64,000 nt of DNA from contig OX438745.1 of NCBI GenBank assembly GCA_949316235.1, forward strand, positions 1,245,001 to 1,309,000, in the 5' to 3' direction. Positions within the stretch are counted from its first letter, which is position 1; each line of letters starts with the position of its first letter. Under the pieces are notes generated by a model. The model saw nothing but the letters and a program-made list of their open reading frames with translations. It was not told where the DNA came from and did no database searches. Of this stretch, positions 1 through 58,245 are shown in pieces. Origin of the DNA: Oegoconia quadripuncta. Its lineage: Eukaryota; Arthropoda; Insecta; Lepidoptera; Autostichidae. The position numbers and the translations under genes are program-made.

Positions 1-1430
1 GGGGGTCGGTAGAGGCCACTCACTGCGTCAGTATCCACAGCTCCCCGGAGCAGGCCAGCGCGCGCTGCAGCGCGGCCCGGGCGGCGGCCACGTTGGTGAG
101 TCCGAGCTAATGGGGGTCGGTAGAGGCCACTCACTGCGTCAGTATCCACAGCTCCCCGGAGCAGGCCAGCGCGCGCTGCAGCGCGGCCCGGGCGGCGGCC
201 ACGTTGGTGAGTCCGAGCTAATGGGGGTCGGTAGAGGCCACTCACTGCGTCAGTATCCACAGCTCCCCGGAGCAGGCCAGCGCGCGCTGCAGCGCGGCCC
301 GGGCGGCGGCCACGTTGGTGAGTCCGAGCTAATGGGGGTCGGTAGAGGCCACTCACTGCGTCAGTATCCACAGCTCCCCGGAGCAGGCCAGCGCGCGCTG
401 CAGCGCGGCCCGGGCGGCGGCCACGTTGGTGAGTCCGAGCTAATGGGGGTCGGTAGAGGCCACTCACTGCGTCAGTATCCACAGCTCCCCGGAGCAGGCC
501 AGCGCGCGCTGCAGCGCGGCCCGGGCGGCGGCCACGTTGGTGAGTCCGAGCTAATGGGGGTCGGTAGAGGCCACTCACTGCGTCAGTATCCACAGCTCCC
601 CGGAGCAGGCCAGCGCGCGCTGCAGCGCGGCCCGGGCGGCGGCCACGTTGGTGAGTCCGAGCTAATGGGGGTCGGTAGAGGCCACTCACTGCGTCAGTAT
701 CCACAGCTCCCCGGAGCAGGCCAGCGCGCGCTGCAGCGCGGCCCGGGCGGCGGCCACGTTGGTGAGTCCGAGCTAATGGGGGTCGGTAGAGGCCACTCAC
801 TGCGTCAGTATCCACAGCTCCCCGGAGCAGGCCAGCGCGCGCTGCAGCGCGGCCCGGGCGGCGGCCACGTTGGTGAGTCCGAGCTAATGGGGGTCGGTAG
901 AGGCCACTCACTGCGTCAGTATCCACAGCTCCCCGGAGCAGGCCAGCGCGCGCTGCAGCGCGGCCCGGGCGGCGGCCACGTTGGTGAGTCCGAGCTAATG
1001 GGGGTCGGTAGAGGCCACTCACTGCGTCAGTATCCACAGCTCCCCGGAGCAGGCCAGCGCGCGCTGCAGCGCGGCCCGGGCGGCGGCCACGTTGGTGAGT
1101 CCGAGCTAATGGGGGTCGGTAGAGGCCACTCACTGCGTCAGTATCCACAGCTCCCCGGAGCAGGCCAGCGCGCGCTGCAGCGCGGCCCGGGCGGCGGCCA
1201 CGTTGGTGAGTCCGAGCTAATGGGGGTCGGTAGAGGCCACTCACTGCGTCAGTATCCACAGCTCCCCGGAGCAGGCCAGCGCGCGCTGCAGCGCGGCCCG
1301 GGCGGCGGCCACGTTGGTGAGTCCGAGCTAATGGGGGTCGGTAGAGGCCACTCACTGCGTCAGTATCCACAGCTCCCCGGAGCAGGCCAGCGCGCGCTGC
1401 AGCGCGGCCCGGGCGGCGGCCACGTTGGTG
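1..1430. repeat. 111-bp tandem array (at least 13 units) of APN exon-15 end plus splice donor
   Basis: A perfect head-to-tail repeat of period 111 bp. Unit starts fall at 110, 221, 332 and so on to 1331, and the first unit is cut by the window edge, so the true copy number may be higher. I saw no base differences between units. Read on the minus strand, each unit holds the last coding part of APN exon 15 (ending LWILTQ), the donor GTGAGT, about 20 intron bases ending in TTAG, and then re-enters exon sequence at CACCAACGTGG. The right-hand unit runs into the unique part of the exon at 1431. The 83-bp exon-like part and 28-bp spacer add to 111, a multiple of three, which makes a fortuitous plus-strand open frame. 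An assembly artefact is possible because the units are identical. Confidence 0.97.
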
Positions 1431-1523
1431 CGCTGAGTGCGCGCCAGCACGAAGCGCCAGTGCGCCACGCTGCCGCGCCTCACGCCCACACAGTACACCG
1501 TCTTGCGGAGGTCCAGGGGAATG
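1356..1523 (-). CDS. APN exon 15 (its end is the tandem-array unit)
   Basis: 168 bp, residues about 752-808: [20 protein letters not shown] to [13 protein letters not shown], the conserved family block with two Cys. Acceptor AACATTGCAG. The first donor is GCA|GTGAGT at 1356. The same 3' part and donor recur every 111 bp to the window edge (donors at 1245, 1134 ... 24). Only the first donor keeps the frame open, because the next in-frame codon after CAG is TGA. Confidence 0.92.
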
Positions 1524-4500
1524 CTGCAATGTTACAGCTGTTGTCATTATAATGCCTACGGTTATATTAAGCCCGACATAAATTTTTGTGGTTTTTAAAT
1601 AGATAATGATGTTCCAATCAAAAGTTCAAATCAATCTCGAAAATCGAATTCCTATTTTAGTGAGCCGGGCTTTTGGACTTGTATGAATTTGATACCGGCC
1701 CCGATCATGACGTAGAGAGTGATGAGGATGTTGGCGGTGAGGAGCGATATGCTTGCCCGCAGATTCACACGATGTCCTGCCGACGTCAAAGTGACCCTAT
1801 TTAAAGTTGTTATTGTACAAAACTTTCAGAACAGACGTCGATTGCCTCACACAGTTAGCTGTCTAATCTTCCAGACGGCATATGCTGCGGAACTCAATCT
1901 ACTTGCTAAATATTCTAGATGTGGTCCCCACTGAAACTTGGAGTCAAGAGTAATTCCTAAAAATACCGTTTTATCTACAAATTCTACTTTATCTTCGTCA
2001 ATCATAACGTTGCAATCAATTTTTCTTACATCAGGTATGAAGAAATTTATGCATTTTGGTTTTTAGCATTTAAACCAAATTATTAACTGTAAACTAGCGT
2101 AAAATTAACCTTGTTAAAAATATTGTCTTTTCTGTCAACTTTAAAAACTAATGATGTATCATCAGCAAATAGTACTATCTCGGTCAATCTCTGAACCATA
2201 AATGGGAGATCATTTATATAAACTAGAAACAGAAAAGGGCCTAATATTGAGCCTTGTGGCACGCCCATCCTCACTCGAGAGCCTGGTGATCTTACCCCAT
2301 TGACATTCTATTTTCTTTTTTTATATTCTATTTTCTAAATAAGACTGAGTCGTGATAACGCTCTCAGATTTGAATCCGCAATGTTTCAATTTCACTAATA
2401 ATGTTTTGTGATCAACACAGTCAAATGCCTTTGAACCATCGCAAAAAGCTAAACCATAACCAAAACATTACGTTAGGTACATTTTATATCGCGTTAATCA
2501 TACGAATGCAAATTAATATTTTTTTTAACACTCGTGGTTGTTCTAAACATTTTGGGTTTGGTTTTACTTTGGTAGCGTCTTCGATATAATAGTTCACCAA
2601 AAATAGCGCAATACCATTTTTTTACATCAGCTAAACCAAAACCAAAAACGTTCCGTTCGAACGGTAAAACCTTTGTAAAATAGCGCGATTGGTGCCATGT
2701 TGGTGAATCAGTAAATAATAAAAAAAAACGTTCTGTCAGTCATTTTACTCTAGTACTCCTGCATACACGCGCCGAGCCTACAACGTCCTGTTTTTTTTTT
2801 TTTTTTCGCGGAGAAATGCTTTACGCGTACCGCTCGCCTGGGGGGCGGCGAGACGGTTATGTGGGACTCCCCTCCCTGTCGCGAGGGATACCCACTAAAA
2901 CCCCGCGGCGACCTTCTTCGGCAGTAGGGAGGACCTGGGAACGCTTAGGCGGCTCCAGGCCCACCACCGCCTCGCCTCCCTTCACAAGCGGAGGCCCATT
3001 CCCGGAGGCCGTCTAGCGCACCCTCCGCGCTGTCGAGCCTCACACCGCGTGAGGCGAGCGGTATGAGGCGCGACAGGGCCTGATGCGACGACACCTCCCC
3101 GGTCGCTCCGGGGGGTGTCATCCTCTCCCGGGCCGCGTCCGACGACTATATCGCCCCGAGATGTAGCGTGTTCAGTACAACAATGCCTTCAGGATGCTGT
3201 TGGAGGAACCCTTGAAACACCTTGTGGATTCTTCACATCAATCATAGTTTTTCTACACCTTTATGTCCAAGGTTTATACTCACGGGTTGTCCTCGTCAGG
3301 GTTAGCAGTGTCCATCCAGCTCTGGAACAACGCGATCGCATTCTCCTCACAGCCGGGGACCTTCATCCGGCATGCCCAGCTGCTGGTTAACGTCTGCGGA
3401 AATCGTGTGCGTTAAACCAAGCAAAAAATCGGCCAAGTTCGAATCGGGAGGTACTTGTGGAATGAGCGTGCCGCAGTATTAAAAAAAACAAACATTTATT
3501 TTCCAGACATAAGAGCCATGTTTGTCAGTACAGTCACCTATAACTATATTAGTAAATAGTGCCGATAGACAGAAAATTTTTAAATAACATTTTATTTACA
3601 AAATCCAAAGGTCAATTGGAAAATTAAAACATAAAAATTCTAAAGTTAAACATTGAAAGTAAAATTATTATTATAGAAAATGTGAAATAAATAAATAAAT
3701 ATTTCGGGCACTTACTCCAATCATCTAATCCCGAACTAAGCAAAGCTTGTCCTATGAATACTAAATAACGGATAAACATAAATAAATATTCATATAAACA
3801 TCCATGACTCGGGAATAAATGTTTCAAATTCATCACACAAACATTTACCCGTCGCGGGAATCGAACGTGCAACCGTTGGTTTCGCTGATAGGTTCACTAT
3901 CCACTACACCAATCGGTTGTCATTATGTGTGTCGCAGATAGCGATAAATTAGCGATAGAATTCATTATTCGAACGGTCAACTGACTATCATATACGCGGT
4001 TAATGGGAAGTAAACCTGGTGGCGCTGGTATCGCCGGAAACGGCGCGGTGACGAAGTTAACGGTTATATTAGGTCTTCACATAGAAAGTAGGACACACTT
4101 TTGCTACCAGCCTTCAAAGGAGTCGGAGCTCCACTGAACACATCTACGACTGAGTGATTTGATTATTATCACCGACGCGTGGAAGAATCCGGTGAGTCGT
4201 TAGCTAATAAGAAGTTGATCATGGGATTTGAGCAAGGAGGAATTGAAGACTACTCCGATTTAATTCCACAGACTGCACGCGAGGGCCAAGTTGTATGGCA
4301 CGAGGGGCGTGCACATGTTTTCTCTTCAACAGAAAGCATCTCAGGTTCCATGATTATAATCGAATGTGAAGACGTTGCCGATTTGTCTATAGTAGCTTGC
4401 AATAATGTCGCCTTTGCCCGAGCCACCCTTTACCACGCGACTGGCACCGTCCCGGTCACTAGCAACGCCCACCCTCGAACCCGTCATTCTCCGACATATA

Positions 4501-7500
4501 TATTAAATATGTATGGATTATGATTAAACTGCACAACAAAGTATGTCAAGTTTCCTTCGAGCTAATTTTTTCACACCATATTTTTCCAATGTTCATGATT
4601 TTTTACAGATTTTCAAGCGACACTTTTGAAGATATGCTGAAGAACAGCGATTTTGAAGATATTAAAGAGAAATAGCGTTAAAATCATCTGCACTATGTCT
4701 CATCAGCTACTTCTATATTCCCTATATTTAAACGGTAGCTTCGTCGCCTGCATTATTATACTATTAAGTACTCGTATATTACACTTAATAAACAACATTG
4801 GGTTTACGATTCGGAGGTCGCGGGTTCGATCCCCAGCGGGGTACATGTTTAAGTACTCGGTTTGGTTGGTGGTAGGGCATTTTACATGGCCGCCTGGCTA
4901 GCTACCACCATCTTATCTAAATCTGCCGCCAAGCAGCAATGTTATGTTCCGATTGTCAGAGATAAGGTAGCCAGTTCCTCAAATATGATGGGGTTTCCGG
5001 GTCAGTACGCTTCCGCCTTCGCCCTCATCTTCACATAACATCTTTCTTAATAAGGGAACCTGATATACAAAATCTTCCTCTCAATAAATTTAAAGATACT
5101 ATAAAACAGAAACTTATTAACAAAGCATATTATAAAATCAGACTATTTAGATGATAATCATCCCTGGACATAATCAGATCGTTCACATGACAGGCTATTT
5201 TGCAATTAATAATGAAATATAAAAACCTTTTTGTAATATAAAAACCTTTATGTAAAATCAAAGCCATGATTTTAAAAGAGCAACCCCTCGAGTTTCTTGC
5301 TGGTTTTTCTCAGGCGAAATATGCATTTTGAACAGGCAGTAGCTTAAAACAATTAAAATTGACTATTTTAAGTGTACTCTGTGTACCTACAAAATAAAGC
5401 ATTTTTTACTTTGAATTTGACATCAGATGTGATTGAGGTCAAGTGCTAACCCGTTGATAAAAAAAAAAGTTATAGAAAATCTTGTGAAAAAAATTGGAGA
5501 ACATAACCAGGTCATAAGGACATATAAATGGATGTCAGTCCTCACCTGCATTTTAACACTATTCAGATCGTCAGGATTCACGATCGTCTTCTTGGCTAGT
5601 CCGCCAGCCTGCTCGTACTGGTCGCCGATCAGTTTCCTCACGAACTTCTGGAAGGCGCCGTAGTCCGAAGTGCGCTTTAGTACGGTCTCGATCTTAGCCA
5701 GCGCTTGTAGGCCGGTCGAGAGTGGAAGATATTCCGTCTCACGTTGGAGATAGTTCGCTAAGCTGTGTGAAAGAAAGAGGTGTAGCGGTGTTGTTACGGG
5801 GTTATGTATAACGCTTTCTCAATAAGGTTCCAGTTGAAGTTAAGGTTAGTTGTATACTTTTATATATAAAAAAAAAGAAAAGAAAATGATCCTGTGGGTT
5901 TCTTGCGCCGCTTCTTTTCCCACAGATGATTTCCCTTTCCGAAGCGGTGGTAGCTTGCACATACTGACTGACCGAAAAATGCTTAGCCCTATTTTTATTT
6001 CCAATAGATTTAAATTGACATTCAACAAATGATATCATGTATCTTACATTGAAATAAAATGCTTTGAGTTTGAGTTTGAGTTTGATATACAAAATCTTCC
6101 TCTCAACAAATTTAAAGGTACTATAAAACAAAAACTTATTAACAAAGCATATTATAAAATATCAGACTATTTAGATGATAATCATCCCTGGACATAATCA
6201 GATCCTTCGCATGCCAGGCTATTTCACAATTAATAATGAAATATAAAAACCTTTATGTAAAATCAAAGCCTGATTTTAAAAGAGCAACCCTTCGAGTTTC
6301 TTGCTTGTTCTTCTCAGGGGAAAATTGCATTTTGAACAAGCAGTAGCTTAAAACAATTAAAATTGACTATTTTATGTGTACTCTGTGTACCTACAAAATA
6401 AAGCATTTTTGAATTTCACTTTGTTCTTTTGAGCTGATACTCATTTGTGGGTTTGGGTTATTGGAGTTCAAATTCGAAATTTTAAACGACTGACTGATGA
6501 ACTGACGGGATCCTTTTTGTTTTTGGCACATTTATTTCTAGATTTCAACTCAGTCGCACCGTTATTCTAATCATTTTTTTTACATCTCAATAATAATGGA
6601 GGTCAAAAAAACGTAGGGCACCGTCTACCTTCAGTAGACCACTGTTGAGTCTTTCACTGAGTGTGGAGGCGGGAATATTGGATCCGATTATGTAATGGAA
6701 AAATCTAACGTATATTCCCAGCCTTATTGTTGCCGTCAATCCCCTTAAGTGTTGACTCACTGCAGCGTGGTGCTGTAGTCGAGCTGGTTGCTCCAGGCCA
6801 GCGCGAAGGCGTCGGACAGCAGCTGCACGCGGCCCAGCGCGGGCACGCCGCCGAAGCGCGAGCTGGACAGGGCGCTGGACAGGAGATCCCAGTTCCGCCG
6901 GTCGTAGTTCACTCGGTACAGCGCTGATGGTCAACAATCAAATTCTATGTCTTACCTCAAATATTTTTTGTCCCTTTTAAACAACTGGTCAAAATTTTCG
7001 GGACGATGGCGATCAAATCATACACGTGATCGCTGGATAATTGGCCCGTATAGGGTATTGAAATTTAGATACGTACAACGTACAGTATGACAATGTTGGT
7101 ACCACGACAGAACTTGTATACAAAAGTAATACGAATTGTCAACTTCATTATCATCATATCAGCCGAAAAACGTCCACTGCAAGATCGCAGGAAGCCGTTG
7201 GATGCCACCAGCCCAGGACCGATCGCTGTGGAGATCTTTGGGGTAGGTCTTGGTCCAGCAGTGGACATCTTTCGGCTATGTCGACACACTGCCACTTAAG
7301 TTTGGCAATTACTCGGGCTATCCTGCGGATCTCCTCATCCCTGATGCTATCCCGCAGGAGACTCCGAGCATAGCCCATCTCGATTGCCCTTTGGGTGACC
7401 TTGAACCTTCTTTGTCCATGTTTTTTCAGCTTTTCAACTTATCCATCATTAATCGTGCGTGATGCTTGAATGCACACATTTATTTATTGCCAAGAACATG

Positions 7501-10500
7501 GGTACAAATGTTATAGACAGGTAACAGGGGTTAGTTTTTGTACATTTCTGGTGTGCAAAACAATATACTTTTATATACTATAATATATTATTATAATTAT
7601 AACCTACTAGCTTTCCGCCCGCGGCTTCGCCTGCGTGGATTAACTTTATCGCAAAAATTTTTTTTTAAGCACGACGGTTTCGTTCTTCATCAATCACACC
7701 CGATGTTAAGTGAAGATGAGGTCGAAGATGGAAGCGTACTGACCCGGAAACCCCAACACATTTGGGGGACTGGCTATCTTATCTCTAACAACCGGAACAC
7801 AACAATGCTATTAACATTGCTGCTTGCCGGCAGATTTAGATAAGATGGTGGTAGCTAGCCAAACGGACATTTAAAATGCCCTACCACCAACCAAACCGAG
7901 TACTTAAACATGTACCCCGCTGGGGATCGAACCCGCGACCTCCGAATCGTAAACCCAATGTTGTTTACATTGAGCCACGGAGGCGGTTTATTTTAATCCA
8001 GAGCATGTTTTACCTAAATTTCATCCAAATCCACTCATCCGTTTCGCCGTGATTGAGCAAACATCCAAACTTTCTATTTTATAATATTAGATAATGTAAT
8101 TGTAAATTGTTGAGGCTAAATCTCAAATCTGTTGTAACCATTCCCTTACCAATCATATCTGGATTGAACAGAATCCATTCCTTGGCAGAGGCGGCGTGTT
8201 CGAATCTGTGCTGAAAAACATAACAGTCAGTCAGTGATAATGTAGTTTGGTCGCCATGTGGTATTCAAAATCAAAATCAAAAAATGCTTTATTTTGTAGG
8301 TACACAGGGTACACTTAAAATAGTCAGATTTTACATTTTTAAAGCTACTGCTTGTTCAAAAGGCAATTTTCTCCTGAGAAGAACAAGCAAGAAACTCGAG
8401 AGGTCGCTCTTTTTAAAAAAAGGTTTTTATATTACAAAATTATTATTTTATATTATGGACACCTTAACTTCTTGCAGACCTCTTTTTAAGCAATTAAACC
8501 TCCTAACCGTTCCAGGTCTGTATATTTACGAATCATGTGTCTTTGTTAGAACTCACCCGCATTTATTCCAAAAAGAAAAGGAGGTTTGTAACTTTAACAC
8601 CAGGTAGGTACCCCGAGAGACTTGTGCTTCCGCGTAAAACAACTAGCTTGTATAGCAGAAATGCATATTGCATGGCAATAAATATTTATAATAAGTTAAA
8701 TGACGAATTGAAGTCTATGCCCTTAAATTTTTTTAAGACGAAACTAAAAATCTCGTTAATTCAAAACTGTTTTTACTCTGTCGATGAATATTTTAATTAT
8801 TTGAAAGCTCAGAAGTTGTAACCCATATATTTAATTATTAATATTTAAGTTTGTATGACTAGGACTAGTATGTGTGTTTGTTTTATATTATTGTGTGACT
8901 CTGTAACGTAATATTGTTTTTTTTTTTTAAATTGTAAACTCTAGAAATTTCGCATGCTCGTTTCTGGTGAAAAGTGTGATTCCATTACCATAACAATGTA
9001 TCAACTTATCTTATTGTACCACTTTTCAAGCGAAATAAATACTTACTATTTCATTATTAATTGTGAAATTGATTGTTTATCATCTAAATAATCTGATATT
9101 TTATAATATGCTTTCTTAATAAGTTTCTGTTTTATAGTACCTTTAAATTTATTGAAAGGAAGATGTTGTATATCAACAGGAACTATATTGAAAAAGCGTA
9201 TACATAACCCTTTGAATGAATTACTGACTTTGTGGATTAAAGATGGTGGTTGGTCGAGGACGGGGGGTTCCGTAAATAAGTGTGTCTTAGGAATAAATTT
9301 AAAGAAATTAATATATTAACATTAGCATCGCAATATGTTTAAGAAAACTTAATGTATGTAAGAAAAAATCTAGAGCCGTTTAAGAAAAACAGTGATATAC
9401 ATAATGTTAATACAATATATTAAAATAAACTTGGTGTTCATGTCAGCCGTTTACACAAAGTCACTAAGTCATTTAAGGGGCAATGTATACGCTTTTATAA
9501 TAAGGTTCCAGTGGACATTCAAAATTTACCTTTAAATAAATTCAAAACCATCATAAAACAGACATTATTTACCAACGGCTACTATAAAATTTCTGACTAT
9601 CTGGATGATACGCAAGCATGGACATATAGACCGCTCGGCGATATTCAGTCTAATTACACAATACAATATAATTTGTAACCCAGACTTATTTAAAAGAGCA
9701 ACCCTTGAGTTTCTTGCTCGTTCTTCTCTGGGGAATCAGCTTTGTGAATGAGCAATAATGTCAAAAACTTTAATAATAAGATAAAAAATGTGACGTTTTC
9801 AAGTGATAATTTTTATCCTACGAAATAAATATTTTTTTGATTTTGATTTTGATTTTAAGACTAGTTGTCTATTGTGCTGTTGCACGAACAAGGCCCTTTA
9901 ATAATGAACAAGCCTATTTATTACATTGGTATCGGCGCTGACTAAGCGATATGCGTTTATATTGCAGTAAACCACTACGCTACAGTTAAACACCGAAATA
10001 AGGCAAGGTTATCAATATACTACAGAATTCTTCTAAATTTTTGAAGTTAAAAAAGTAAACTGAAACCTCAACTTTAGACTTCAATAAAGAAAAAAAACTA
10101 AAAGTGATTTGTTCTTCCAATTTTTTCAAAACATCTCTGGACTGTCCCCTTTCTAATGGTATTTTTTTTTTATGATTGACTGGATTCGCGTTTGACCACA
10201 ATCTCACCTGATGGAAAGTGACGATGTAGTCGAAGATGAAGCACGCGATCCCAGTAAATGCCTATTCACTCTGCTCTTAAAGATCCCAAGGTTGTAGGAT
10301 TCAGGAAAGACTGACGCCGGAAGGGAGTTCCATGCCTTGGCTGTTCGGATGATGAATGAAGAATCGAACTTCTTAGTGCGAATGTTCGGTATATTAACTA
10401 TATACGGTATGCAATAATAATGACAACCAACCTTATTTTTAACCCCTTCATTGTTCGCGAGCCATTCGATGGGATCCGGTTTCTGTCCAACGTCACTTTC

Positions 10501-13500
10501 ACACATAACACTCAGGGGGATCCACCAAGATACGGATGTGCTCGACTTCGCGCCAAGATTCAGGTAGCGTTTCTGTAATAACACTAGATTATTGCATCGA
10601 GGGTGTTAAATCACTCAATACGAGGTTCTCAATCTGCTTTTCTTACAATGAAAAACATATGCAAGATGAATATAAAAGAACACACTTTTTCATTGAAATC
10701 CGCCAAACTTTATTTTTCAATGTGTTTTTTTAAATTAAGAACAAACCAGCAGTGAAGGCCAAGCAGATGCTTCTAAATTCGCTTAAAAAAAAGCGAATTT
10801 AATTGCGTCGGAAAATATACTTGGAACTCCTGTAACTATTTTCAAAAAAAAAAACGATCAATAACTTGTTCATATTTCTGAAAAATTTCACAGAGGGCGC
10901 ATATCACGACTGAATAAACAATTTTTAGAAACTATAAAGTCGCCATTTATTGATTTTTAGAAAATTGTTTTAGGGGCTCTTTGCATCCTCTACAATGCAA
11001 ATGAACTTCACAGTGGTAACTTCAATTACTAAATACCTATGCTATACTTAAAGGAAGTTACAGAATTGTTATAAAACATTTATATTCTATTACTGAAACT
11101 TTAAAATTATAGGAAGTCACACCACAAAAATTTGCGTATTTTTACTGGATTATTATTGACCCCTGACCTGCGACACAGTGACCGAGTTGTCGCTGTAGTC
11201 CCTGGTGACCGTGAGCAGCGGGTAGCCGGTCTGCGTGGTCCAGGTGTCCATGACCTCCTTGACGGTGACGTTGCGCGTGAGGCCGCCGTAGCGCCGGCTC
11301 ACGGCCGTCAGCTCGGCCCACAGGTCGTCCTGCTCCGCGTTGCTGTACGAGTACTTCACTAGGTACCTGCAAACGTACCAACGTGGCATCGTCATCCATA
11401 GGAGAAGGTGATCATTTTGACTAATCATGCAAACAGACATTTGAAAAAACAGCTTTTTTATAATGAGGAGCCAGAATGTGTCCAAAAAAGCTTGGGTATG
11501 GCAAAAGAAGAATGAACGTAGCATAAATGCAGTGGAAATGAGATCATTGAGAAGTATGAATGGGGTGACTTTGTAAGATAGAATCAGAAATAGTGTAATT
11601 AGGGAGTTAAGCAGTGTGAATGAAGACGTAGTGACAATTATTGAAAAAGGTATGCTGAAATGTTTTGGACATGTGGAGAGTATGAATGAAAGAAGACTTA
11701 CGAAAGAGATATACAAAGCGAATGTGGATGGTATGTGTTAGAAGGGGAAGACCACGGCGAACGTACCATGATCAAATCGGGGACGTCTTAAAGAAAGGCC
11801 AAGTCAAGAGTACCCTAAACCGACGAGCATGTATGAACAACCTTATGAGAGTGAAGGAAGCAGAAGAGGTGTGTCAGGATCGTAGCAAGTGGAAGTCTGT
11901 GGTCTCTGCCTAGCCCTATGGGAAATAGGCGTGACATTATGTATGTATGTATGAATTTGAATTCGTATAATTCCCCAAGGAACCATAGACGAATTCGATC
12001 AAAAACTTTACGATTACCCATAGAAAGTAAATCATTCTGAAACCACCTTTATTATGGAAGTCCAACAATTTTCGGCTGATGACTCGCGACGCCACTATTA
12101 CTATTGGTATTATTATTCGCGGTAGCCTTTTGCTTCCTAAACATTGACACTGACTGTGTTGTGGCGCTGTCCGTGGTATATCAAAACCAAAATCTCATAA
12201 TGAATCTGGCGTAAGTCAGTATCCTTTTATTATAATGAAAAGATTGCTTACTGATGGAGGGCCTTCCTGAAGACATCCTCGCCGAGGAACATGGTCATCA
12301 TACGGATGAGCGTAGAGCCTTTGCGGTACGAGATCTCGTCGAAGATCTCCGAGATGCGCTTCGGATCATCCAACGGCGCTGACACCTAGTAAAAGGGATA
12401 ATGAATAAATATAAGGTCTAACAAAATTAACCCGACAAACGTTGCAGAATGTATGTATAGGATGTACCTATTACGAAAAAAATAAAACATTGAAGTTAAC
12501 AGATTTTATTAAAAAAATAAAAGATTAGAAATTTAAATTTTGTGAGTTGGACCTTAAGCCTGCGCCGAGGGAAATGTGCTAAAACAGCAGTTACTGTTAA
12601 GTTGATAAATTCAACAATACTTGATATACACATTAAAAAAAAATACTTTTACCATGACGAAGAATGTCTAAATATTTACTCCGTGGAAAAATGTTAAAAT
12701 TATTTATACATTACTCTACAAAATTACGGAAAGTTAGACAAAAATGCAAAAAACGTATGGTGGCGTTAAGTATTATTTTAGTTTATAACATTAGAAATCT
12801 ACGCTTATTTTTAGTTCAACCGAAACAGGAGTGTTTATACTACAAATTTACCGTCTCCAATATAAAAAATTGTATTAGGCAATTAAGATATGAATTTATC
12901 AAAATGCGCTTCAAATCCGCCATACATTTTTACTATGGCGGCCGCGCGGCGATATAAAATAATGTCGCGCATCGCTGTGATTCAGTCCAAAGACTACAAT
13001 GTATATACGGAGATAGACGGGTATGTTGGCGTTTGCAAGCGACTCGGGTTCACAGCGCCATCTATCCGCAATGATGTGTAACTAACCTCGTCAAGGTCAT
13101 GAAACCTAGCCGTACCTACCTAAACCTGGCAACTTGATAGTTACTTCAGAGATTTATTTTCAATGAAACATTGAAATTTCAATTGTTTCATCAAAATTTC
13201 AATGCTGTCATCGAAAATAAACCTCCGAAGTAACTACACATATAATCTAGTTAGGTATCGGTATACAATAAAACACGATTTAACACACAAATTTTATTTA
13301 AGAAAAGCAAACAATAACTATCATCAATTATAACCGTGGGAATAAAATTAATACCAAACAAAAACATAAGGAAAAAGACAAAAATACACTTGGGAATCCT
13401 GTCTCACAGAGTCCTATCTCACATACAATCTTGACTAAAGGTGGAGCAACCAAAACCCGCCCCGAAGGCTACACCGTGACCCTAAACTCACACCATTAGG

Positions 13501-16500
13501 AGCAAATGCACATCACAATCACCAAATCACACGGGAAATACTTTAAATTTTCAGAGAAAATGGAAAGTGAAAAAAATGCGCGTACACATCCAACGACAGC
13601 CGACATTTTTCTCAGTGTTGCCAAATCATCATTAGGTACTTTACGTGTTTTACTTACACAAAACCTAATGCTATCTCAAATATGAAAATTTAATAACTAG
13701 GCAAGAAAAAAATCACTTTAAATTTACTTAGGTACATATAGTTTATTTGTTTTTGAGAAAATATAGACTTTAAATATTTTACATGGTGATCATGGTATAA
13801 ACAAGTTATGACATATGGCGGCTAGGTGGCGCTAGTCTCTATTGGGATGGGAGTATTTGTTCTAAGAGACCACAGCATGATTCAGTCGCCCACAATTGCT
13901 CAGAGCGAGCGCATGTCACTTTGTTGAGCGCCACTATACACACCGATCGCGTCATTTCGTGTACCGGCGACGGCCGAAAACGGTGTAAGTATATTTTTCG
14001 GAGTTTTAAATAGACTGCTAACTTTTTCTTGCATACAAAAAATACCAAGAGACGTTACAGTAGTTAAGTATATGTGATGTATGTACATATTACATTTAGG
14101 TTATTGTTCTGTACTTTCATTAAGACATTGGTCAGTTGCGTAGCAACTTTATTCTGGTTTTGTCTGTCATGTTATAATTATCATATATTTTTAGTAAAGC
14201 TGTCCTTTCTAATAACCTCTCTTTTTTTTTTAATTTTAATTTTAATTTTCTTTTAACCACCGGTTGTCCGGAAGAGGTCACCGCAGTTTTACAATGTAGT
14301 TTATCATAACTGTAGTACCTATATTACTGTTGTTTCATTTCTTGTGCAATAAAGAGTATTCTTTCACTTATTTAATCATTCATTATTTTTTCGAAATAAA
14401 ATTTCGGATTGACAATATATTGGTCTAGTTGGGTGGAGTTCGACAAGATGAGCCAAGTTAAGAAAACTGCAATGGCGTCATTCATTACACTAATAAACTA
14501 TTATTTGTTTCAGTAAAATGGGAAACCGTAAAAAAAGATATTATAAATTAATAAGCAAGACGAGATTCAAGAAAAAAAATAAAACTACAACGCAAATTGA
14601 TAATGAACAGGTCAGTTCTTGTAATTGTAGCAAATATAAGGTCCAATTTGTACGGTGAATGTAGGTATGTAACATAACAAACGACTTTCACTGTGGCGAC
14701 ATGGTTGAAAAAAAATAACAAAAAATTTATTTCCCATCCTAATTTCGATCAGCTGATTGCCGATTTGTTTGGGGATTGGGGAGTGAATTTTTTTTTCGAC
14801 AAAGTCGCCATAGTGTAAGTTCTTTGTTATGTTACATAGATACATTCACCGTACACAAGGAACGCACTTAATTCAATTGGACATTTGATAAGAGTTTTCA
14901 TAATTGACTGAATAACTTATTTTGGACAACTACTAGTAATGCTGTTTTTTTTAGGAATCTCCGCAAGAAACGTCTGATTTTGAATTAAATATAGATATTG
15001 AAAATGAAAAGCAAGAAGAAATTACAATAAACGGAAACAGAATTATAAATTTTACTTACATTTATCAACAACTACAAGAAATTTTAAGTCATAACTCAGC
15101 ACTTGGTTGTATACATACATACAATCCTATACATCTGGAACTAGACATGTGCACTACGGTGTACCTCAAGGCCAGTGTATTAGGCCCACTCCTTTTTCTA
15201 ATATATATAAATGACATTCCGAAATCTACAAATCATCCTATGGTGTTATTTGCCGATGATAGCACTGTGGTATATGAGGATGAAGAGGATATCAACAGCA
15301 GTCTTTCATCTATCATTGACTGGTTGGAATGTAATAACCTTAAGATTAACCTAGACAAAACGAAAATAATGAACTTTAAACAAAGAAACCATTTAAATAT
15401 GACAACAAATGTACAATATAATAGTAAAAGGGTGGATGAAGCATCAGTAACTCAATTCTTGGGTATTAATATTGACAGTAACAAGAATGGACGACACAAA
15501 TAAATGAAGTATGCAAAAAAGTAACAAAGTTCTCATATGCATTACATATCTTAAGCAAAACTGTTAACCGCGGAGCTGTACTTACGGCCTATCATGGCTA
15601 CGTAGCTTCTACTCTGAGATATAGTATAATTTTCTGGGGGAATGCCACAGACAATGAACAAGTGTTTATAGCCCAGAAGCGATGTATAAGAGTTATTTGT
15701 AATTTGCGACGCACAGATTCTTGCAAACCCTTCTATAAGCAGCTGAATTTACTCACGGTTCCTTCTATTTATATTTACGAGACTGCAATTTTTGTTCGGT
15801 CTAATTCTGAGCATTTTGAACATGTTAAACGAGCACGGCGACGTGATCAGTTACGTTTAGTATCCTGTAAAACTACACTTTTTAGAAATAGCATCTTTGC
15901 AATGGCACCAATAATATACAATAAGATACCTAAATTCATTCGAGAATTTCATGATCTAAGTACATTCAAGAGTTCGTTGTTTAAATATTTAATAGAAAAA
16001 CACATTATTCCATTAAAGATTTCTTGAATGACAAATCTGCTTGATTGTTTCTGAGCGGGAAAACAGCACCTAATTTAAATTTGCAGTTGTTAATTTGCAT
16101 TGAGTTACTATTTGACTTGTTATATTATTATTGACTCTATGTGTTGAATAATGTATAAATGACTGAATATAATTCATGTTAAATATTCCATGACTATGTA
16201 ATTTTAATCTAATTTCATTTCAATTTGACATTTTTATTTACCAATTTCAATCGTATTTTACAATTTTAACATTGTCCTTAATAATTGACATGGAATTATA
16301 ATATTAATTTTTGAAACTAAGCTAATGGGTATCTACTGTAATATATTTGTTTTTTTTTTTTGCAAAAAATTCCTACCATCTTAGATAAGCCTATGTACCT
16401 ACCTTAGATAAATAACTAACCATTTTTTTTGTATGCCAAAATGGATCACAATCATCAAAATGGAGTAGATCACAGTGTTACTTATACCATAATATTTACT

Positions 16501-19500
16501 AACATCTTTTATACCTGTGTTTCACATTAATAAATTGAATTGAATTGAACTTTTGCGTTTTATAATCTGTAGATTTTGCAACATCACCAATAGTTTTACA
16601 TTATTGATAAACTTTCCTAAAAGATCAATAAAAATTAAATTTAACAAGGATTTTGTTTTAATTTTTAGCACATTTGGTCAATATTAAAAAGGAGTAGACA
16701 AAGTAAAAATAATTGATACTAAATAGCCCTGAAAATTATTGCGAGAAGAAATCCAATACAACCCCCAATAAAGAAAATGTGAGTTACATATGTTTACGCT
16801 CGGACGGTGTTCGGTCTGCCATACGCACATTCGCATCAAGCGAAATACCTAAACAGCGCGCGCGTCTTTCGCTCGGCGCAGCCTTAATGGCCGCGCGCTC
16901 TAAGTACTTTGCCACAACACACGCTCACGTGTCGCCCCCCTGGCGCCCGCTCGCCGCTCGCCGCTCGCCGCTCGCCGCTCGGCCCCCGGGGCGGGCGCTT
17001 GCCCCGGCGCCGCGACGCGCTGTGATTGGTTGCGCCCGCCCGCCCCGCCACCCCCTTTGACATCTTCCAAATCAATGGAACGTTGCCTATTTTTTCTCAT
17101 TGATAAAACAAGGTACAATCGAAATGAAGTAACTCTGTTAATGTGTACTTTCATTTGCACTTACATTTAATATTTTTAGTCGGAAACAAAATTTTTAAGG
17201 CTAAAACTAGCCTCGAAACTAAAATGATTTTTAATTAATATATTGTTTTATTGTCGTGTACGTGCAATTGCCAAAGTTTGTAGGGTTAATTTTGTTAGAC
17301 CCTATATACAGGGTAAGTCGGAAAGGGGGTACTAAGCCGAAAGGCTGTAAAAGTACCCGTTATAACGAACAACCTTTGTTCTACAACTTTCCTCAAAACT
17401 CAATACATTTCGAGAAAATGCCCTTTAAACATGTCATAACAAAATACTACCAAGTAGCCCTAATCAGCTGTGTTTCATTCATAAAAATGGTTAACATAGA
17501 GTGTGAAACTTTTCACTATTACGATATTTTGCCTACAGCCTACACCCTCCGTGAGGCTTGGTAAGCTGGTAACCAAAAAAAAACTTATTCCTTCAGTAAT
17601 GCTTTTAGGATTTCATAATTTATGCTGGCCCTAAATTAAGATTCCATAAGTAGGTTTGAACGCAAAAGTAAGAAAAAAAATTGACAATACATTCGATTTC
17701 AGAAAGGTTCCATCTTCTACTCTGGAGTGGATCATTGGCGATTTACCCTTCTCAAACAAGAAATATTTTTTTAATCGGGTAAAAATTTACGAAGATATCG
17801 CGTCACAAACGGTCGAATTTAAAACCTTCTTTTAGGAAATCGGTTAATAAATCATACTTTGGAACTTCCACATACCACTAAGCAGCTGGAAATCCATGTA
17901 AAATGTCCACGTCAATGAAATGCTACTAAAACTAATTGGTAATTAATGTCATTCTGAATTTAAAAAAATCGAAACATGTTTACGTATTGCTACCTACTAA
18001 CCCCTCTGCGTTTGCGCACATTACACAATCTTGACTTGACACACACACACATGCATGCGCAAGCCACGCCCTGCCTATCGGCAAGTGCATTCGAATCCGA
18101 ATTCGCCGAAATCCCTATAAAATACGAAGAAATAAAAAATACCTAAATTAAAGCCAGTCGCTTCTACCACTTCCGTGCAAGCAGTCGATTATTTTTGCGA
18201 GTCGTCCTAGTTCGTCGTTATTTGTTATTATCGTTAGAGATTGTCTTTGTTATTAGTTGTTGTCGCTATTAATTGTATTTGTTTGGTAGGTATTAGTTGT
18301 TATTGTTAATAATTCACGATATGCCGGTGGAGTATACCAATCAAAAATACTACGATATGAATTGTGTAGGAAGACGTGATCACGTAGGTACTTACGGAAG
18401 CTCGAGAAGCTTGATTACAAAGAGTGCCTTCAACTTGTGGTTAATGTAATACGCCTATTGTGTAGTTATGTGGACACAAAGGCCGCGCGTGTTTGTGTTA
18501 CGTACGGAATAACAACGTCATCATCAGAAAAGGTTAGTTGTTTCATTAAAAATTAAACCATCATTCTTGTTAAAAACCTAGGTTAGGTACCTAGGTACAG
18601 TAAGGTTCGAAAACGCGTATTTTTTTTTATGCACAACGGGTTTGTACTTGCCCTTAATCACACCTGATGTTAAGTGAAAATGAGGTCGAAGGTGGAAACG
18701 TACTGACCCGGAAACCTCAACACATTTGGGGGACTGGCTATCTTATCTCTGACAACCGGAACACAACAATGCTATTAACATTGCTGCGTAGAGGCAGTTT
18801 TAAATAAGATGGTGGTAGAAAATGCGTATCCAGTAACAGCTCAAACGATTAAAATCTTTAGATAGGTAAACTTTGATTTCAAACTAAAAGAATTTTTTAA
18901 GCCCCGTTACATAAAAAATATGTAATAACCTTGAAGCCTATGTCTGTCTGTGTCTTTGTTGGGCCGACGTGTTTGAAATCATTTAACACAGTTGCTTTGT
19001 TTACCTGGATGATTCAGTGGGGATTTCTGGAATAATTATTTGCCGTCAATACAAAATTTCAATAGTTTGAGGTGGAACTGGTTATGCACTTATGAACTTC
19101 ATGAAAATTTGATGGAATGTATGGGGCTCTGGTCACCCATAATCCCGCCATACACGTAATCCACATTTCGGTAACTTCCGACGGCACACGCTATGTCGGT
19201 GCCCGACAAAGGGCGGGCGGCGCGTCTCAAAGGGCGGACGGCCCGTGTCAACAGACGGCGGCGCGTTTGACGGACCCGACGCACACGCAGGGCAAAATGG
19301 GCGGGGTCCGCGTCATTTTGGGCGTCGATTATTTTGTCTCTTTTCATTCATGAATTATAGGGTTGTCCAAATTTTCTTAAATTAAATAATTTAATAACTT
19401 TGTATGGAAACAAAAATATGCGTTTTCCCCATGTTAGCGATTTTTGAAATTGTTATGCTGGTATTGATAGCGCGTCTGTGGCGCCGACGGTGGCGTTTTA

Positions 19501-22500
19501 AAAAAAAAGTCAGTGAAGTGTCATTCCATCTTTTCTGGTAAAATGCGGTAAGGAGATTATTTTTGGTGAAGCTTCGTAAAAGAGAAATAAAGAGTATCAG
19601 TGAGATAAGAGAGTTTTATTTTATTAGTTCAGAAGTGAAGTGGCTCACTAGCCCACTAAAGTGAACAGTAATTAGATAGTGTGACGATTGTACACTACAA
19701 CTGTTGTATCTACAAGTTCTCAGGTGAGTCATGTACAGTTTTATGTTGTAAACCTTTTATCATGTGTACCATACCTTGTTATAATTTGTTTACAAGGGTG
19801 TAAACCTATTTGATGTATAAAGTTACACCGATTTCCTTCAGAGTTAGAACAGCTTTAGATAAGATAACATTTATTTGCATTAAATGCAGTTACAATGATG
19901 TTTCATAGACACTAGGTTTCATACATTTAGATTTTATGATCATGCAAATATCAATTGTGAAGTAATATTACTTACAGTTATTTGTTCATGCAAAACATAC
20001 TAATCAATATGATAAGAATTTGTTCCTACAACTTATTATCCTAAAACAATGATTTCTAAGTCAAAAGAAAATATCAAGAATTTGAACAACTTACAAATGT
20101 CAACGGAGAATGTCAAACTAAGTAAACAATGAAATATTCACAATAGTCAATACAAACAAACATTCAATGTCACAACAATTGAATAACCACCTTAACAACA
20201 AAATAACTAGATTATAATTATAGAACTAGAAATACTAGAATATGCCTACATTAAAGGTCCTACTGTAATACTAGTAAGTACATGTTTTTCTTTGAGATAA
20301 TCTTGGACTGAGTAGAAACATTTGTTTGAATTGGCTTACAATGAAATCAGTACCTATATTTGTACTATCGCCAGCAAAAGTGCATGGTTAACATTAAGGT
20401 TGCTATTAGCTTGCATATTCGGGCACTAAAAAAGCTTCCGAACATTTAAATATGAGGAAGTTCACCGACGCATAGCCGGTGAGTGGTACAATTAGACACG
20501 ATATACCAACAGGTGGCGTTCTGAAGCGGCGCCTTCTGTCTTAATTTCGAAACAACCATGCAATTATGCAGGTGATAGTACCTAGTTTATTAAACTAGTG
20601 ACCTATCACCGAACACATTGATATTTCTTTCAACTTTGAGTAGATTAATATTTATAGTTAAACATATACTGACAATTTAACTAATTACTATTTAAACGGA
20701 ATGAACGTTACATATTTAATTTTTATTTCATACTGACAAATGATAAAATAGGAGTACCTATATGTGTAGTTCTTATAATTATTTAATTTATTACATAGAA
20801 ATATTATAAATGCCAGTTTTACACGTAAACAAAGTATACTCTGCCCTCGTTAATTAATAATATTGGAAATCTGTAAAAGTGAACGGTGTTTATGTATACT
20901 TAATATTTCACTACGTATTGGTGTAGGTAACATTGATGTATTTTATAATATGTTAATTTCAAGCATGATCAAAGTACCTAAATGAAAATAAACGAATTTA
21001 GTTAGTCGTATGAGTTTGTGCAAAAAAAAAAAAAAAAAAAAAAATCTATAAATTAACGTTGTAAAATCTCTTTGTTTCTACCGCACAGATATGTCAGACG
21101 CTCAAACTCCCCCTCTCAGTACGCAGTATGATGCAAATAAATCTGGAAACAAACGAAAACGTCATAAGAGGAGTAAAACGAGACATAGTGCAAGTTCTTC
21201 ATCTACTTACCGGGCACGTAGTAAAGATAAAAGAAAGCAAAGAAGAAGTCCATCTACTTCCAGTGATTCATCGTCTTCTCCTAAAAGAAGTCGAAAATCC
21301 AAGAAGTCTAAACGTGGCAGTACCTCCAGAAGACGACGAAGCTCCTCATCGTCTAGTAGTAGCTCAGTAAATAGAAGGAGTATGTCCTCGATAAAATCGC
21401 GTAGTACTGAGTCGTCCGTTTTGACACAGTTGGTAGCCGCTTTAGAAGGCAAAACTCGAGCCCCTCAGGGCCATGGTGCTCAGAACATCATCCCTGAGTT
21501 CGATCCTCAAGCCAAAACTCAAACGATGAAAGATTGGCTTACTAAAATCAATGAGTCAGCCACTGTCTACGGATGGTCAGAGAGGCAAACTATTTACTAT
21601 TCGTTACCCAGACTAAGTGGATTAGCTAAGCGATGGTACGATGGTTTGACGAGCGTGAAGTATTCTTGGGATGAATGGCAGACGAAACTCTTGAAAGCTT
21701 TTCCGTGTGAGGAAAATTATGGTGACCTCCTGACGGAAATGCTGGCAAGAAAGAGTAGGAGGAATGAAACCCTTGAGGAATACTATTATGATAAAATCAG
21801 ATTAATCAATAGATGCGATATAACTGGAACTAAAGCTGTTGACTGTCTCACTCACGGTATTTATGACCATAACATTCGTATGAATGCTCAAGGTTCATGT
21901 TTCAAGGAGCCTGAAGACGTTTTAACCTACTTCCGAAAAATATCGACGAAGAAGGACGATATCCCGCGAAAGGCAATAAGTTTACGGGGACCTTCGATCA
22001 TTGGACACCAGAAGCAATCACAGACTATGGATAAATCTCTGATCAAACCTGAAACCAAATGCTTCAACTGTGGAGTGCATGGTCATTACTGGCAGTCTTG
22101 TCCCAAGGACCTGGTCAAATGTGGGAGATGTAGACGGGTCGGACATACTGCTGAACGATGTGATAAAAATGGCGGCGTCGCAGAAAGAACACCATCAGGT
22201 CCTAATACAGCTAAAAAGGTTCTTCAAATTCAGACCGAATGTGACGCCGGGCAAAAGTATTATAAAAATGTTACCGTGGACGGCGAAAATTTAAAAGCGT
22301 TCATCGACTTAGGAAGTGAATGCACACTTCTCAGTGACAAGGTAATAATAAAGTCTGATGCATCACAAGTAGAAAGTGACCTACCTACGCTAAAAGGATT
22401 CGCAAATGGAAGTATAAAACCAAAAGCTAAGGTGCAAATACGTGTACGGATTGACAGTGTAGAAGAGGATATAGATGCATTCATCATTCCTGATTCACTC

Positions 22501-25500
22501 CTACCAACAGAAACAAGTATACTAATAGGACAAAACCTTACTGAACTTCCACACATTAGAATATACAAGACGGATACAGATCTGACGTTATTTAAATCAC
22601 ATGATAGGCCGATAAAAATCTCTGTACAAAGTGACATCGAAGTTGTTGGAGTGACAATGGTTTCAGTCGTCGCAGATGAACAGGCTGCATTTGTGCACAT
22701 TGCGTCGGAAGCTTGTATGAAGCCAGGAGCTGAGTATGTAATAGTACCAGGAATATACTCCTTTCAAGAAGGCAGTGCGGACATAATCGTCATGAGTTTG
22801 TCGTCTACAAAAGTTAAAATGACTGGTGGTCAATTGATAGCGAGAGGCACAGTGATACCTGACTGTGTCTTCGCCAGTTCTACTAGGTCGACATCTAACG
22901 TGACAAACGACAAGGTCACTTTGAATATATGTAGGGTATCAAAGGAATCCTCGCATGAAGATGAGTCAATGATAAATTTTTGTGATTTAAATGCAGATAG
23001 CGCTTTACATGGAGATGTGAAAGTCGAACTAACCAATTTACTAAATGGATATAGAGAGTGTTTTGCCTTCTCAACAGCAGAACTAGGTAAGACTACAATT
23101 GCAGAAATGCACATAAAGTTAAAAGATGATAGTCCTGTAACTTATCGCCCATATCGTCTATCATTCTCTGAGAGGCAAAAGGTCAAGGGTATTATTGAAG
23201 ACCTGTTAGTTAATGGGATTATACGTGAGTCAGAGTCCGAATACGCCAGCCCAATTATTGTAGTGCCCAAGAAGAATGGAGACCTACGGCTTTGCGTCGA
23301 TTATAGGGCGCTCAATAAAAAGACTGCCAAGGACAGGTATCCTATGCCTCTAATTGAGGATCAGATAGATAGTCTGTCTGGACAAAAGTTTTTCACGACT
23401 CTTGACCTCGCATCAGGCTATCACCAAATACCGATAGCGGAGGACTCGAAATACTTGACGGCGTTTGTCACGCCAGACGGCCATTTTGAATACAATCGAA
23501 TGCCGTTTGGTTTGTGCAATGCCCCGGCCGTATTTCAGCGGTTAATTCACAGAGTCCTAAATCTAAGGAAAATACCCGGAGTCTTAGCCTACATGGATGA
23601 TATCATCATCTCATCAAAAACGATACCCGAAGGCATGCAGAAATTGCGCCAGGTGCTCGAGGCTCTTAAAGAGGCAAACCTTACTCTTAAATTAAGTAAA
23701 TGCCACTTTTTCGGTACACAAATCGAGTATCTAGGCTATGAGATCTCGGCAGAAGGGGTCAAACCCGGACTAAAGAAGACTGAGGCAGTGGCCGCCTTTA
23801 AAAAGCCCGAAAATGTGCACGAGATTAGACAATTTATCGGACTTGCCAGTTTTTTCCGCCGGTTTGTGCCGGGATTCGCTACAATAGCGAAACCCCTCAC
23901 AAATCTTACAAGAGCTAGTGAAACATGGGTGTGGGGCCCACAGCAAGAACAAGCATTTGCCAGAATAAAAGAAATTCTTATTTCACGCCCGATACTCGCC
24001 ATATACAATCCGTCACACTTAACGGAATTACATACGGATGCGAGTCAAACGGGTATAGGCGGAATACTGTTGCAACGAAAAGACGAAAAGTCACCACTTT
24101 GTGCAGTAGCCTACTTCAGCAGACAAACAACCGCTGAAGAAAATCACTTTCACTCATTTGAGTTAGAAACTTTAGCGGTTGTGATGTCGCTCAATCGTTT
24201 CCGCCATTATCTCATCGGAGTTGATTTTAAAATAGTTACTGACTGCAATGCAGTTAGATTGACGTGGGCCAAGCGAGACATTGTCCCAAGGATTGCTCGA
24301 TGGTGGTTACAGGCTCAAGAGTTTAACTTCACCATTGAATATCGACCGGGAATTCAAATGGCACATGTCGACGCACTTAGTAGGAATCCCACGGGATCAG
24401 ATAGCTTCAACGAAAACCCTACAGCTGCAGAAGTTAAAATATTGGCAATAGCAACTTCTAAAGGTCTTGATGATTTGCAACTTACAGATCCAAGTTTACA
24501 ACACATAAAATGTATTTTAGATAACGACTGTGCAGAAGCCAAAGATATTCGTAATAATTATATGATAAAAAATGGTAAAATATATAGAAGAGTGGGGGAT
24601 TCGTTGAAGTGGGCTGTTCCTCATGATTCACGGTGGAAAATTTGTCACATGTCTCATGACGAGTGCGGACACATGGCATATGAGAAAACATTGGACAAGA
24701 TGAAACAAACTTACTGGTTTCCACACATGACTTCATTTGTTAAAAAATATGTAAAGGCATGTATACCTTGCGCCTATGCGAAACAACCTTCAGGTCGCAA
24801 GGAAGGCTATCTTCACCCAATACCCAAAACCCCGATACCGTTTTACTGCGTTCACATTGACCATTTAGGTCCTTTCGTAAGGAGTAAGAAGGGGAACACT
24901 TACATATTGGGAATAATTGACGGTTACACAAAGTTTATAATCCTCAAGGCCGTACGTAATACAAAAAGCAAGACTTCGATTGCTGTATTAAAAGATGTGT
25001 TTGGGATATTTGGTGCACCTAAACTGCTTATTTCGGACCGCGGTACAAGTTTCACGTCCAATGAATTTGCAGAATTCGCCAAAGAACTTGAGATTAAACA
25101 CGTTAAAAATGCTGTGGCAATGCCGAGGGCAAATGGCCAAATAGAACGGTATAACCGGACTATTTTGGCTTCGCTCGCTGCACTAACACATGGACAGGAT
25201 GACAAGGAATGGGACATGCATCTTAACACGGTGCAATGGAGTCTCAACAATACTCTGAACAAGGGTATTGGAAAAACTCCATCTGAAGTTATATTCTGTA
25301 AACAGACAGTGAATATCTCGGAAGCACACTTGCATGACCTAACAGAGGAAAACACAATGATTAATGATGTAATTATTACGGAGATAAGAGGACATGCATC
25401 TCAAACTATTAGCAATAACCAAACAGACATGGTAAAGAGATTTGATGCGAAGAGACGCCCAGCTAGGGAATATAAAGAAGGTGAATTAGTGCTAGTCCAG

Positions 25501-57480: not shown

Positions 57481-58245
57481 TCGGACTAATCGATGTACAT
57501 ACATAAAGATTACAGAACCTCCTCCTTTTTTGAAGTTGGTTAAAAAAAGTTTTTAGTATTTATCCGTGGTTGCTAATCTCCATGATAATTTTTGTGCGAT
57601 GGCGAACCTTCTCGCTCTTACAGGTTAGGTGGGCACTTGGGGTGTACCAGCTCGACTTGATGATCTTCGATTTGTCATATTTATTGTTGATAATCACACC
57701 GACGTAAATTGGCTTAAAAATCTCGGACTAATCGATGTACATACATAAAGAATACAGAACCTCCTCCTTTTTTGAAGTCGGTTAAAAAAAGTTATTAGTA
57801 TTTATCCGTGGTTGCTAATCTCCCTGATAATTTTTGTGCGATTGCGAACCTTCTCGCTCCTACAGGTTAGATGGGCAGTTCGGGTGTACCAGCTCGACCT
57901 GATCATCTTCGATTTGTCATATTTATTGCTGACAATCACACCGACCTTCTCTACACTTTTTCCATACAAACCCAAACTGTATCTACTTAGTTTCCCTGTG
58001 TAAAAACTACAAAATCGTCTAAATGTGTAATGCCATTCTGATGTTTACCATGATTACACAAAAACTACTGGACCGATTGCGCTGAAATTACAATGGGACC
58101 AACTCGACGGTATCCCCTTTCATTTACAAAAAGAACCATGTGAATCAACCGCCAAATCTCGGAGATATCTGTGTACATACATAAAAAAAAAAAAAAAAAA
58201 AATACGCGCCGAATACAGAACCTCCTCCTTTTTTGAAGTCGTTTA
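57481..58245. repeat. 241-bp duplication and 'CCGACTTCAAAAAA' family repeats
   Basis: The text TCGGACTAATCGATGTACAT begins at 57481 and again at 57722 (period 241 bp). CCTCCTCCTTTTTTGAAGT occurs three times (about 57520, 57761, 58222). Related to 27220-27750. Confidence 0.8.

What the first reader, a model, noticed from the sequence alone, without database searches (positions are those of the whole stretch)
1..1523. Tandem array multiplies an APN exon end and its 5' splice site
At least 13 perfect 111-bp units each contain the last ~75 coding bases of exon 15 and the same GTGAGT donor. Donors fall at 1356, 1245, 1134 and every 111 bp down to 24. The primary transcript would present many identical competing donors in a row. 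Only the first keeps the frame: any later donor retains an in-frame TGA right after CAG. I know of no described case of an exon-plus-donor minisatellite in an APN gene.
Basis: partly seen in the sequence, partly recalled or inferred. Interest (0 to 1): 0.88.

Follow-up and report, generated by a model that had tools for sequence, protein, structure and literature searches.

The report
Insect gene's splice site repeated 22-fold
In a moth or butterfly digestive-enzyme gene, the end of one exon with its cut-here splicing signal is copied 22 times in a row without a single difference, and by the reading frame only the first signal gives a full protein, so the gene is a natural test of how cells choose among identical splice sites.

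Summary
Window 1-1430 holds 12.9 copies of a 111-bp unit at 100% identity. In the source genome (622.6 Mb, 45 contigs) the array runs on below the window: 2,450 bp, 22 copies plus 8 bp, no difference, inside a 39-Mb contig. Each unit is the last 75 nt of exon 15 of a lepidopteran aminopeptidase N (APN) gene plus the first 36 nt of intron 15, so the pre-mRNA carries 22 identical donors, GCA|GTGAGT. The first restores Q|YLEW with exon 16; later ones keep a TGA at codon 809. An 8-bp direct repeat, CACCAACG, bounds the unit in exon and intron, as expected if the minisatellite was born by slippage or unequal exchange. Most likely it is a young or homogenised array, tolerated because the first donor is used; no RNA was available. 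The kind is known: a 1995 title describes a minisatellite giving multiple splice donors (seen as citations). A Heliothis virescens gene model repeats the same exon end ten times, a hint of recurrence. New variant of a known kind.

The parts
1..1430 (-). Tandem array of the 111-bp unit, 12.9 copies here; continues outside the window to C4:1243981 (window -1019), 22.07 copies in all
1356..1523 (-). Exon 15 of the APN gene (168 nt, enters and leaves in phase 2)
   Evidence: joined to exon 16 it reads Q|YLEWAI
1356..1430 (-). Last 75 nt of exon 15: the coding part of the repeat unit
1320..1355 (-). First 36 nt of intron 15: the intronic part of the repeat unit
1350..1355 (-). First, productive donor GTGAGT; simple-matrix score 8.7, range 1.0-10.7 for the gene's fifteen donors in the window
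18..1244 (-). Twelve further identical donors in the window (last exon base at 1245, 1134, 1023, 912, 801, 690, 579, 468, 357, 246, 135, 24); nine more lie outside the window
1423..1430 (-). Exonic copy of the 8-bp direct repeat CACCAACG that bounds the unit; the intronic partner ends the array at C4:1243981-1243988
1356..44184 (-). APN gene, exons 1-15: 44184-44020, 32121-31850, 31071-30913, 29973-29926, 29126-28964, 28856-28644, 28005-27796, 12385-12252, 11366-11168, 10572-10432, 8210-8150, 6923-6761, 5762-5546, 3393-3284, 1523-1356. Exon 16 and hits for two more exons lie outside the window; the gene's 3' end was not traced.

Best explanation
It is a young or recently homogenised minisatellite that straddles the exon 15/intron 15 border of a lepidopteran APN gene whose frame is intact over the 16 exons joined here. 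Origin (inferred from the junctions): an 8-bp direct repeat, CACCAACG, present in exon 15 and 111 bp downstream in intron 15, allowed a first duplication by replication slippage or unequal exchange, and the array then grew to 22 identical copies. Action (inferred): the 168-nt exon 15 is defined by its own acceptor and the first donor, so the array is normally removed inside a 3.7-kb intron and a normal APN is made. Use of donors 2-22, or of a weak acceptor-like site inside the array, puts a stop at codon 809 or within about 30 codons of it, so leakage lowers output and copy number could set the size of the leak. Shown here: array, copy number, identical donors, open frame, stops, direct repeat. 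Inferred: which donor is used, leakage and its effect.
For: 22 identical copies with unique sequence on both sides. Open 15-exon frame, splice sites chosen by homology and all GT-AG. Exon 16 follows after the array and gives QYLEWAI with donor 1. 43 of 46 related proteins with a residue aligned there have Q next; the other three have K, G, L. Donors 2, 3 and 22, tested with exon 16, stop at residue 809. The exonic junction GCG|CACCAACG|TGG and the intronic junction ACT|CACCAACG|AAT share 8 bp. A model of birth at 5-10 bp direct repeats by slippage or unequal crossing-over is described in PMC3389668 (passages seen). Exon 15 is the most GC-rich of the 15 exons (0.73; window 0.38).
Against: No RNA data, so first-donor use is not shown. 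The decoys are as strong as the true donor, and local RNA folding does not set donor 1 apart: chance of the 9-mer being unpaired 0.00036 against 0.00029-0.00032 for the other 12 donors in the window. From recalled work on competing donors, the one nearest the acceptor can win, which would favour a decoy. Exon definition as the deciding rule is recalled knowledge, not tested. The unit folds no better as DNA than shuffles (z 0.90), so a hairpin cause is not supported.
Confidence: 0.72

Rival explanations
1. The array is a selected attenuator: decoy donors divert a copy-number-dependent share of transcripts to stop-containing or truncated forms, and this lowers or regulates APN.
For: All 22 donors are identical and strong on a simple matrix; donors 2, 3 and 22 as tested stop at residue 809. 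Extra truncated APN transcripts are reported for Helicoverpa armigera APN1 and APN3 (PMC6722899, outline and part 1 of Results read), though through non-canonical junctions. A Heliothis virescens model repeats the same exon end.
Against: No expression data and no sign of selection. The H. armigera paper says its data suggested that truncated forms did not influence translation of the wild type. A passenger array explains the sequence as well.
Confidence: 0.1
2. Assembly artefact: one or a few real units inflated by the assembler.
For: All copies are exactly identical; the four other TRF rows nearby with more than 10 copies are 81-90% matched. No reads were seen.
Against: The array is 2.45 kb with unique flanks inside a 39-Mb contig. 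In this genome the exon query matched at this place only (22 matches; the tool calls such counts lower bounds). A short-read assembly would hardly yield 22 perfect copies (inference).
Confidence: 0.1
3. The array is exonised: weak acceptor-like sites in each unit (TTAG 28 nt and CTGCAG 70 nt after the donor) are spliced to the next donor, adding 83- or 41-nt pseudo-exons.
For: The CTGCAG site scores -1.1, close to the accepted acceptors of exons 9, 12 and 15 (-1.1, 0.3, -0.2). The H. virescens model strings copies together in a similar way.
Against: The TTAG site scores -4.1. The forms tested (1, 2 or 3 pseudo-exons of either kind) stop within the first one. The matrix rests on 14 acceptors only.
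Confidence: 0.05
4. The repeat is a dispersed satellite family that happens to lie here.
For: Perfect tandem units with 100% identity.
Against: The unit is the gene's own exon and intron sequence. It matched only this place in the 622.6-Mb genome (counts are lower bounds) and nothing beyond position 1600 in the window.
Confidence: 0.01

Closest known systems
Minisatellite of a human interferon-induced gene (Turri, Cuin and Porter 1995, Nucleic Acids Res 23:1854; title seen as a citation, paper not held; that the gene is 6-16/G1P3/IFI6 is recalled, and agrees being a G1P3 paper)
   Same: By its title, a minisatellite supplies multiple splice donor sites within one transcript.
   Different: Recalled: that unit is about 12 bp. 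Here the unit is 111 bp, made of 75 nt of conserved coding exon plus 36 nt of intron, with 22 perfect copies, and only the first donor leaves the frame open.
Minisatellite birth at short direct repeats (Haber and Louis 1998; model seen as described in PMC3389668, passages)
   Same: An 8-bp direct repeat bounds the unit, within the 5-10 bp of the model.
   Different: Here the two repeats lie in coding exon and intron, so the duplication carries a splice site.
Heliothis virescens aminopeptidase model A0A2A4JS21 (P0013)
   Same: The same exon-15 end repeated: 6 copies in frame and 4 in another frame, before the exon-16 residues QYLEW.
   Different: Its repeat also holds most of the exon and upstream residues (period 99 aa of the model), and it is a gene model whose DNA was not seen. 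It may be independent in origin or an artefact.
Dscam-type arrays of alternative exons (papers seen in search listing only)
   Same: Tandem copies of exon sequence in an arthropod gene.
   Different: Here the copies are identical, lack a normal acceptor of their own and lead into a stop, so they cannot be exchanged for one another.

Membership tests
Minisatellite | Head-to-tail array of units of tens to about a hundred bases, with high identity | tested here: met
   111 bp, 22.07 copies, 100%
Minisatellite | Copy number varies among individuals | not testable with these tools
   One assembly only
Minisatellite born at direct repeats (Haber-Louis type) | Short direct repeats (5-10 bp) bound the founding unit | tested here: met
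   CACCAACG, 8 bp, at the exon and intron junctions; criterion from PMC3389668
Splice-donor-supplying minisatellite (1995 interferon-gene kind) | Each unit carries a consensus 5' splice site within one transcription unit | tested here: met
   22 identical GCA|GTGAGT between exons 15 and 16
Splice-donor-supplying minisatellite (1995 interferon-gene kind) | More than one of these donors is used in transcripts | not testable with these tools
   No RNA from this species
M1 aminopeptidase, lepidopteran APN | Full-length similarity to lepidopteran APNs, with GAMENWG and [10 protein letters not shown] sequences present | tested here: met
   The first 36 listed hits (P0013-P0048; 33 carry the name of an insect that I recall as lepidopteran, 3 are unnamed) are 64-76% identical over 98-100% of 807 aa; both strings are visible in the translation. 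No Pfam scan of the window was run.
Dscam-type mutually exclusive exons | Each copy has its own acceptor and donor and encodes an alternative in-frame segment | tested here: not met
   Units have only weak acceptor-like sites and lead into a stop

The most novel reading that the evidence does not exclude
Exon 15 of this lepidopteran APN is a recurrent hot spot where exon end and donor are multiplied independently in different lineages, and the copy number acts as a length-variable dial on productive splicing of a gut surface enzyme.
Probability: 0.12. Interest if true: 0.78.

Novelty: new variant of a known kind. Interest (0 to 1): 0.52.

Why it matters
Choice among identical 5' splice sites is usually studied in built minigenes (recalled). 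Here nature offers 22 identical donors, each with 75 nt of identical upstream exon sequence, in one conserved gene, where only the first leaves the frame open. Reads over one junction would tell whether exon definition, distance or order decides, and alleles with different copy number, if they exist, would give a dose series. The H. virescens model hints that the same exon has been multiplied more than once. For annotation, such an array could mislead gene predictors into stringing copies together, as may have happened in that model.

Tried and rejected
Hairpin-driven fragility: the unit holds perfect palindromes of up to 14 bp, but as single-stranded DNA it folds no better than shuffles (z 0.90, 166 of 200 shuffles fold at least as well). 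RNA structure hiding the decoys: the 13 donors in the window hardly differ. Other copies of the array: none beyond position 1600 in the window; no APN paralogue among tblastn hits (E up to 1e-4, five query proteins) within 322.5 kb. Dendrolimus kikuchii P0132 looked like a second repeated case but is two APN genes fused in one model. Of 136 proteins collected, 121 hold an exon-15-like stretch; only P0013 and P0132 hold more than one, so one case of repetition within an enzyme. The 136 are the listed hits of three searches: 12 of 2,093 candidates, the best 120 of 7,989, 43 of 7,990. An array hidden in an intron would not show in a protein, so this is no estimate of frequency. Related DNA in viral contigs: four pattern matches but no relative and no exact match of a 40-base pattern; the tool says that records near the window may be left out. 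Age: zero differences over the 1,319 compared sites in the window give at most about 0.78 million generations for a star-like history at a recalled rate of 2.9e-9; homogenisation would void this. A first gene model lacked two exons and showed stops; corrected. The notebook entry miscounts the busy answers; one search corrects it.

Papers: searches. None of the listed papers showed, by title and start of abstract, an exon-plus-donor array in an APN gene; the listings were partial (20 of 34, 5 of 6, 4 of 4, 0, 15 of 155, 12 of 37, 15 of 818, 10 of 38, 0, 8 of 9). The library lacks most subscription journals.

Full report
Observation. Bases 1-1430 of the window are a tandem array of a 111-bp unit, 12.9 copies, 100% identical, no indels. 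The window starts inside the array. When the genome search at last answered, it placed the window at C4:1245001-1309000 of a genome of 622,649,726 bases in 45 contigs and gave 22 matches to the exon query, all in this one place and all 100% identical (the tool calls such counts lower bounds). The fetched sequence below the window shows the array running from C4:1243981 to 1246430: 2,450 bp, 22.07 copies, 22 donors, no difference between a base and the base 111 further on. Unique sequence lies on both sides, and the contig is 39,026,342 bases long. Around the locus, 322.5 kb holds 17 TRF rows of period 20 or more and score 200 or more; this array has the highest score. Four other rows have more than ten copies and are 81-90% matched; one two-copy row is also 100% matched.

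The gene. On the minus strand lies an aminopeptidase N gene. I built the model from tblastn hits of related proteins and splice sites chosen to fit them: 15 exons in the window, 2,423 coding bases, 807 residues, no stop, GT-AG at each intron. Of the first 36 full-length hits, 33 carry names of insects that I recall as lepidopteran and 3 are unnamed; they are 64-76% identical over 98-100% of the query. Exon 16 follows below the window and stays in frame; two further exons are tblastn hits only, and the 3' end of the gene was not traced. A first attempt at the model missed two exons.

The unit. Exon 15 is 1523..1356. The unit is its last 75 nt plus the first 36 nt of intron 15. Each unit ends its exonic part in GCA|GTGAGT. 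On a simple matrix made from the gene's own donors this site scores 8.7, in a range of 1.0-10.7 for the fifteen. The matrix is small and only ranks sites. Donor 1 joined to exon 16 gives ...WILT-Q-YLEWAI.... In 43 of 46 related proteins with a residue aligned there the next residue is Q. With donors 2, 3 and 22, the ones I translated with exon 16, the frame meets TGA at residue 809; the units are identical, so the same stop follows for the rest. Two weak acceptor-like sites per unit, if used, also lead to a stop in the first pseudo-exon. So only donor 1 leaves the frame open.

Origin. The exonic boundary reads GCG-CACCAACG-TGG and the far end of the array reads ACT-CACCAACG-AAT. The unit is thus bounded by an 8-bp direct repeat, one copy in coding sequence and one in the intron; intron 15 is 3,704 bp, and 1,373 bp lie between the last donor and exon 16, which is what a single-copy intron would measure. 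A paper's introduction describes two models of minisatellite birth, one needing direct repeats of 5-10 bp with slippage or unequal crossing-over (PMC3389668, passages), which fits. Exon 15 is the most GC-rich exon, 0.73 against 0.38 for the window, but the unit is not unusually foldable.

Recurrence. One protein among 121 that hold an exon-15-like stretch (of 136 collected) repeats this stretch within one enzyme: Heliothis virescens A0A2A4JS21, with six in-frame and four out-of-frame copies and a 99-residue period, before QYLEW. Its repeat is larger than the window's and holds most of the exon. It is a gene model; its DNA was not seen. Read plainly, the same exon has been multiplied in a second lineage, or that assembly or model is at fault. 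Arrays that are spliced out would be invisible in protein sets.

How it works. The sequence shows 22 equal donors and one that keeps the frame. I think exon definition (recalled knowledge), which favours the 168-nt exon with its own acceptor, makes donor 1 the main site, with some leakage to stop-containing forms; this is inference. Against it, identical donors nearer the acceptor can win in some minigene studies (recalled), and RNA folding gives donor 1 no clear advantage. That the frame is open over the 16 exons joined here argues that a working product is made.

Known or new. A minisatellite that provides multiple splice donors in an interferon-induced transcript was reported in 1995 (title seen in reference lists; paper not held). 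So the kind is known. New here are the size and make-up of the unit, the perfect 22 copies, the single frame-keeping donor, and the place in a conserved APN gene. The partial listings of my searches showed no such array in an APN gene. In Helicoverpa armigera, APN1 and APN3 give many truncated transcripts through non-canonical junctions at short repeats (PMC6722899; outline and first part of Results read); I take that to be a different phenomenon.

Limits. The protein search of the own genome for paralogues did not complete; only 322.5 kb around the gene was checked, with no paralogue found.

Noticed in passing
P0013 (Heliothis virescens A0A2A4JS21), residues 753-1242: The same APN exon end is repeated ten times in a gene model of another moth, in two reading frames, with a 99-residue period.
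   Followed up: partly
window 96-1322, + strand: The unit-to-unit junction makes a GTGAGT on the opposite strand too (12 in the window), and the + strand is open for 516 codons across the array; probably coincidence of a period divisible by three.
   Followed up: no
window 55332-56405, + strand: Open stretch of 357 codons that looks like a mariner-type transposase (by eye, no family search run).
   Followed up: no
window 14955-16027 (+) and 2083-2467 (-): Reverse-transcriptase-like fragments of non-LTR elements (by eye, ORFs) within APN introns.
   Followed up: no
window 57481-57945: Tandem duplication of a 242-bp unit, 1.9 copies, 94% matches, upstream of the gene.
   Followed up: no
P0132 (Dendrolimus kikuchii): Gene model of 1,879 aa that joins two neighbouring-type APN sequences in one protein.
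   Followed up: yes
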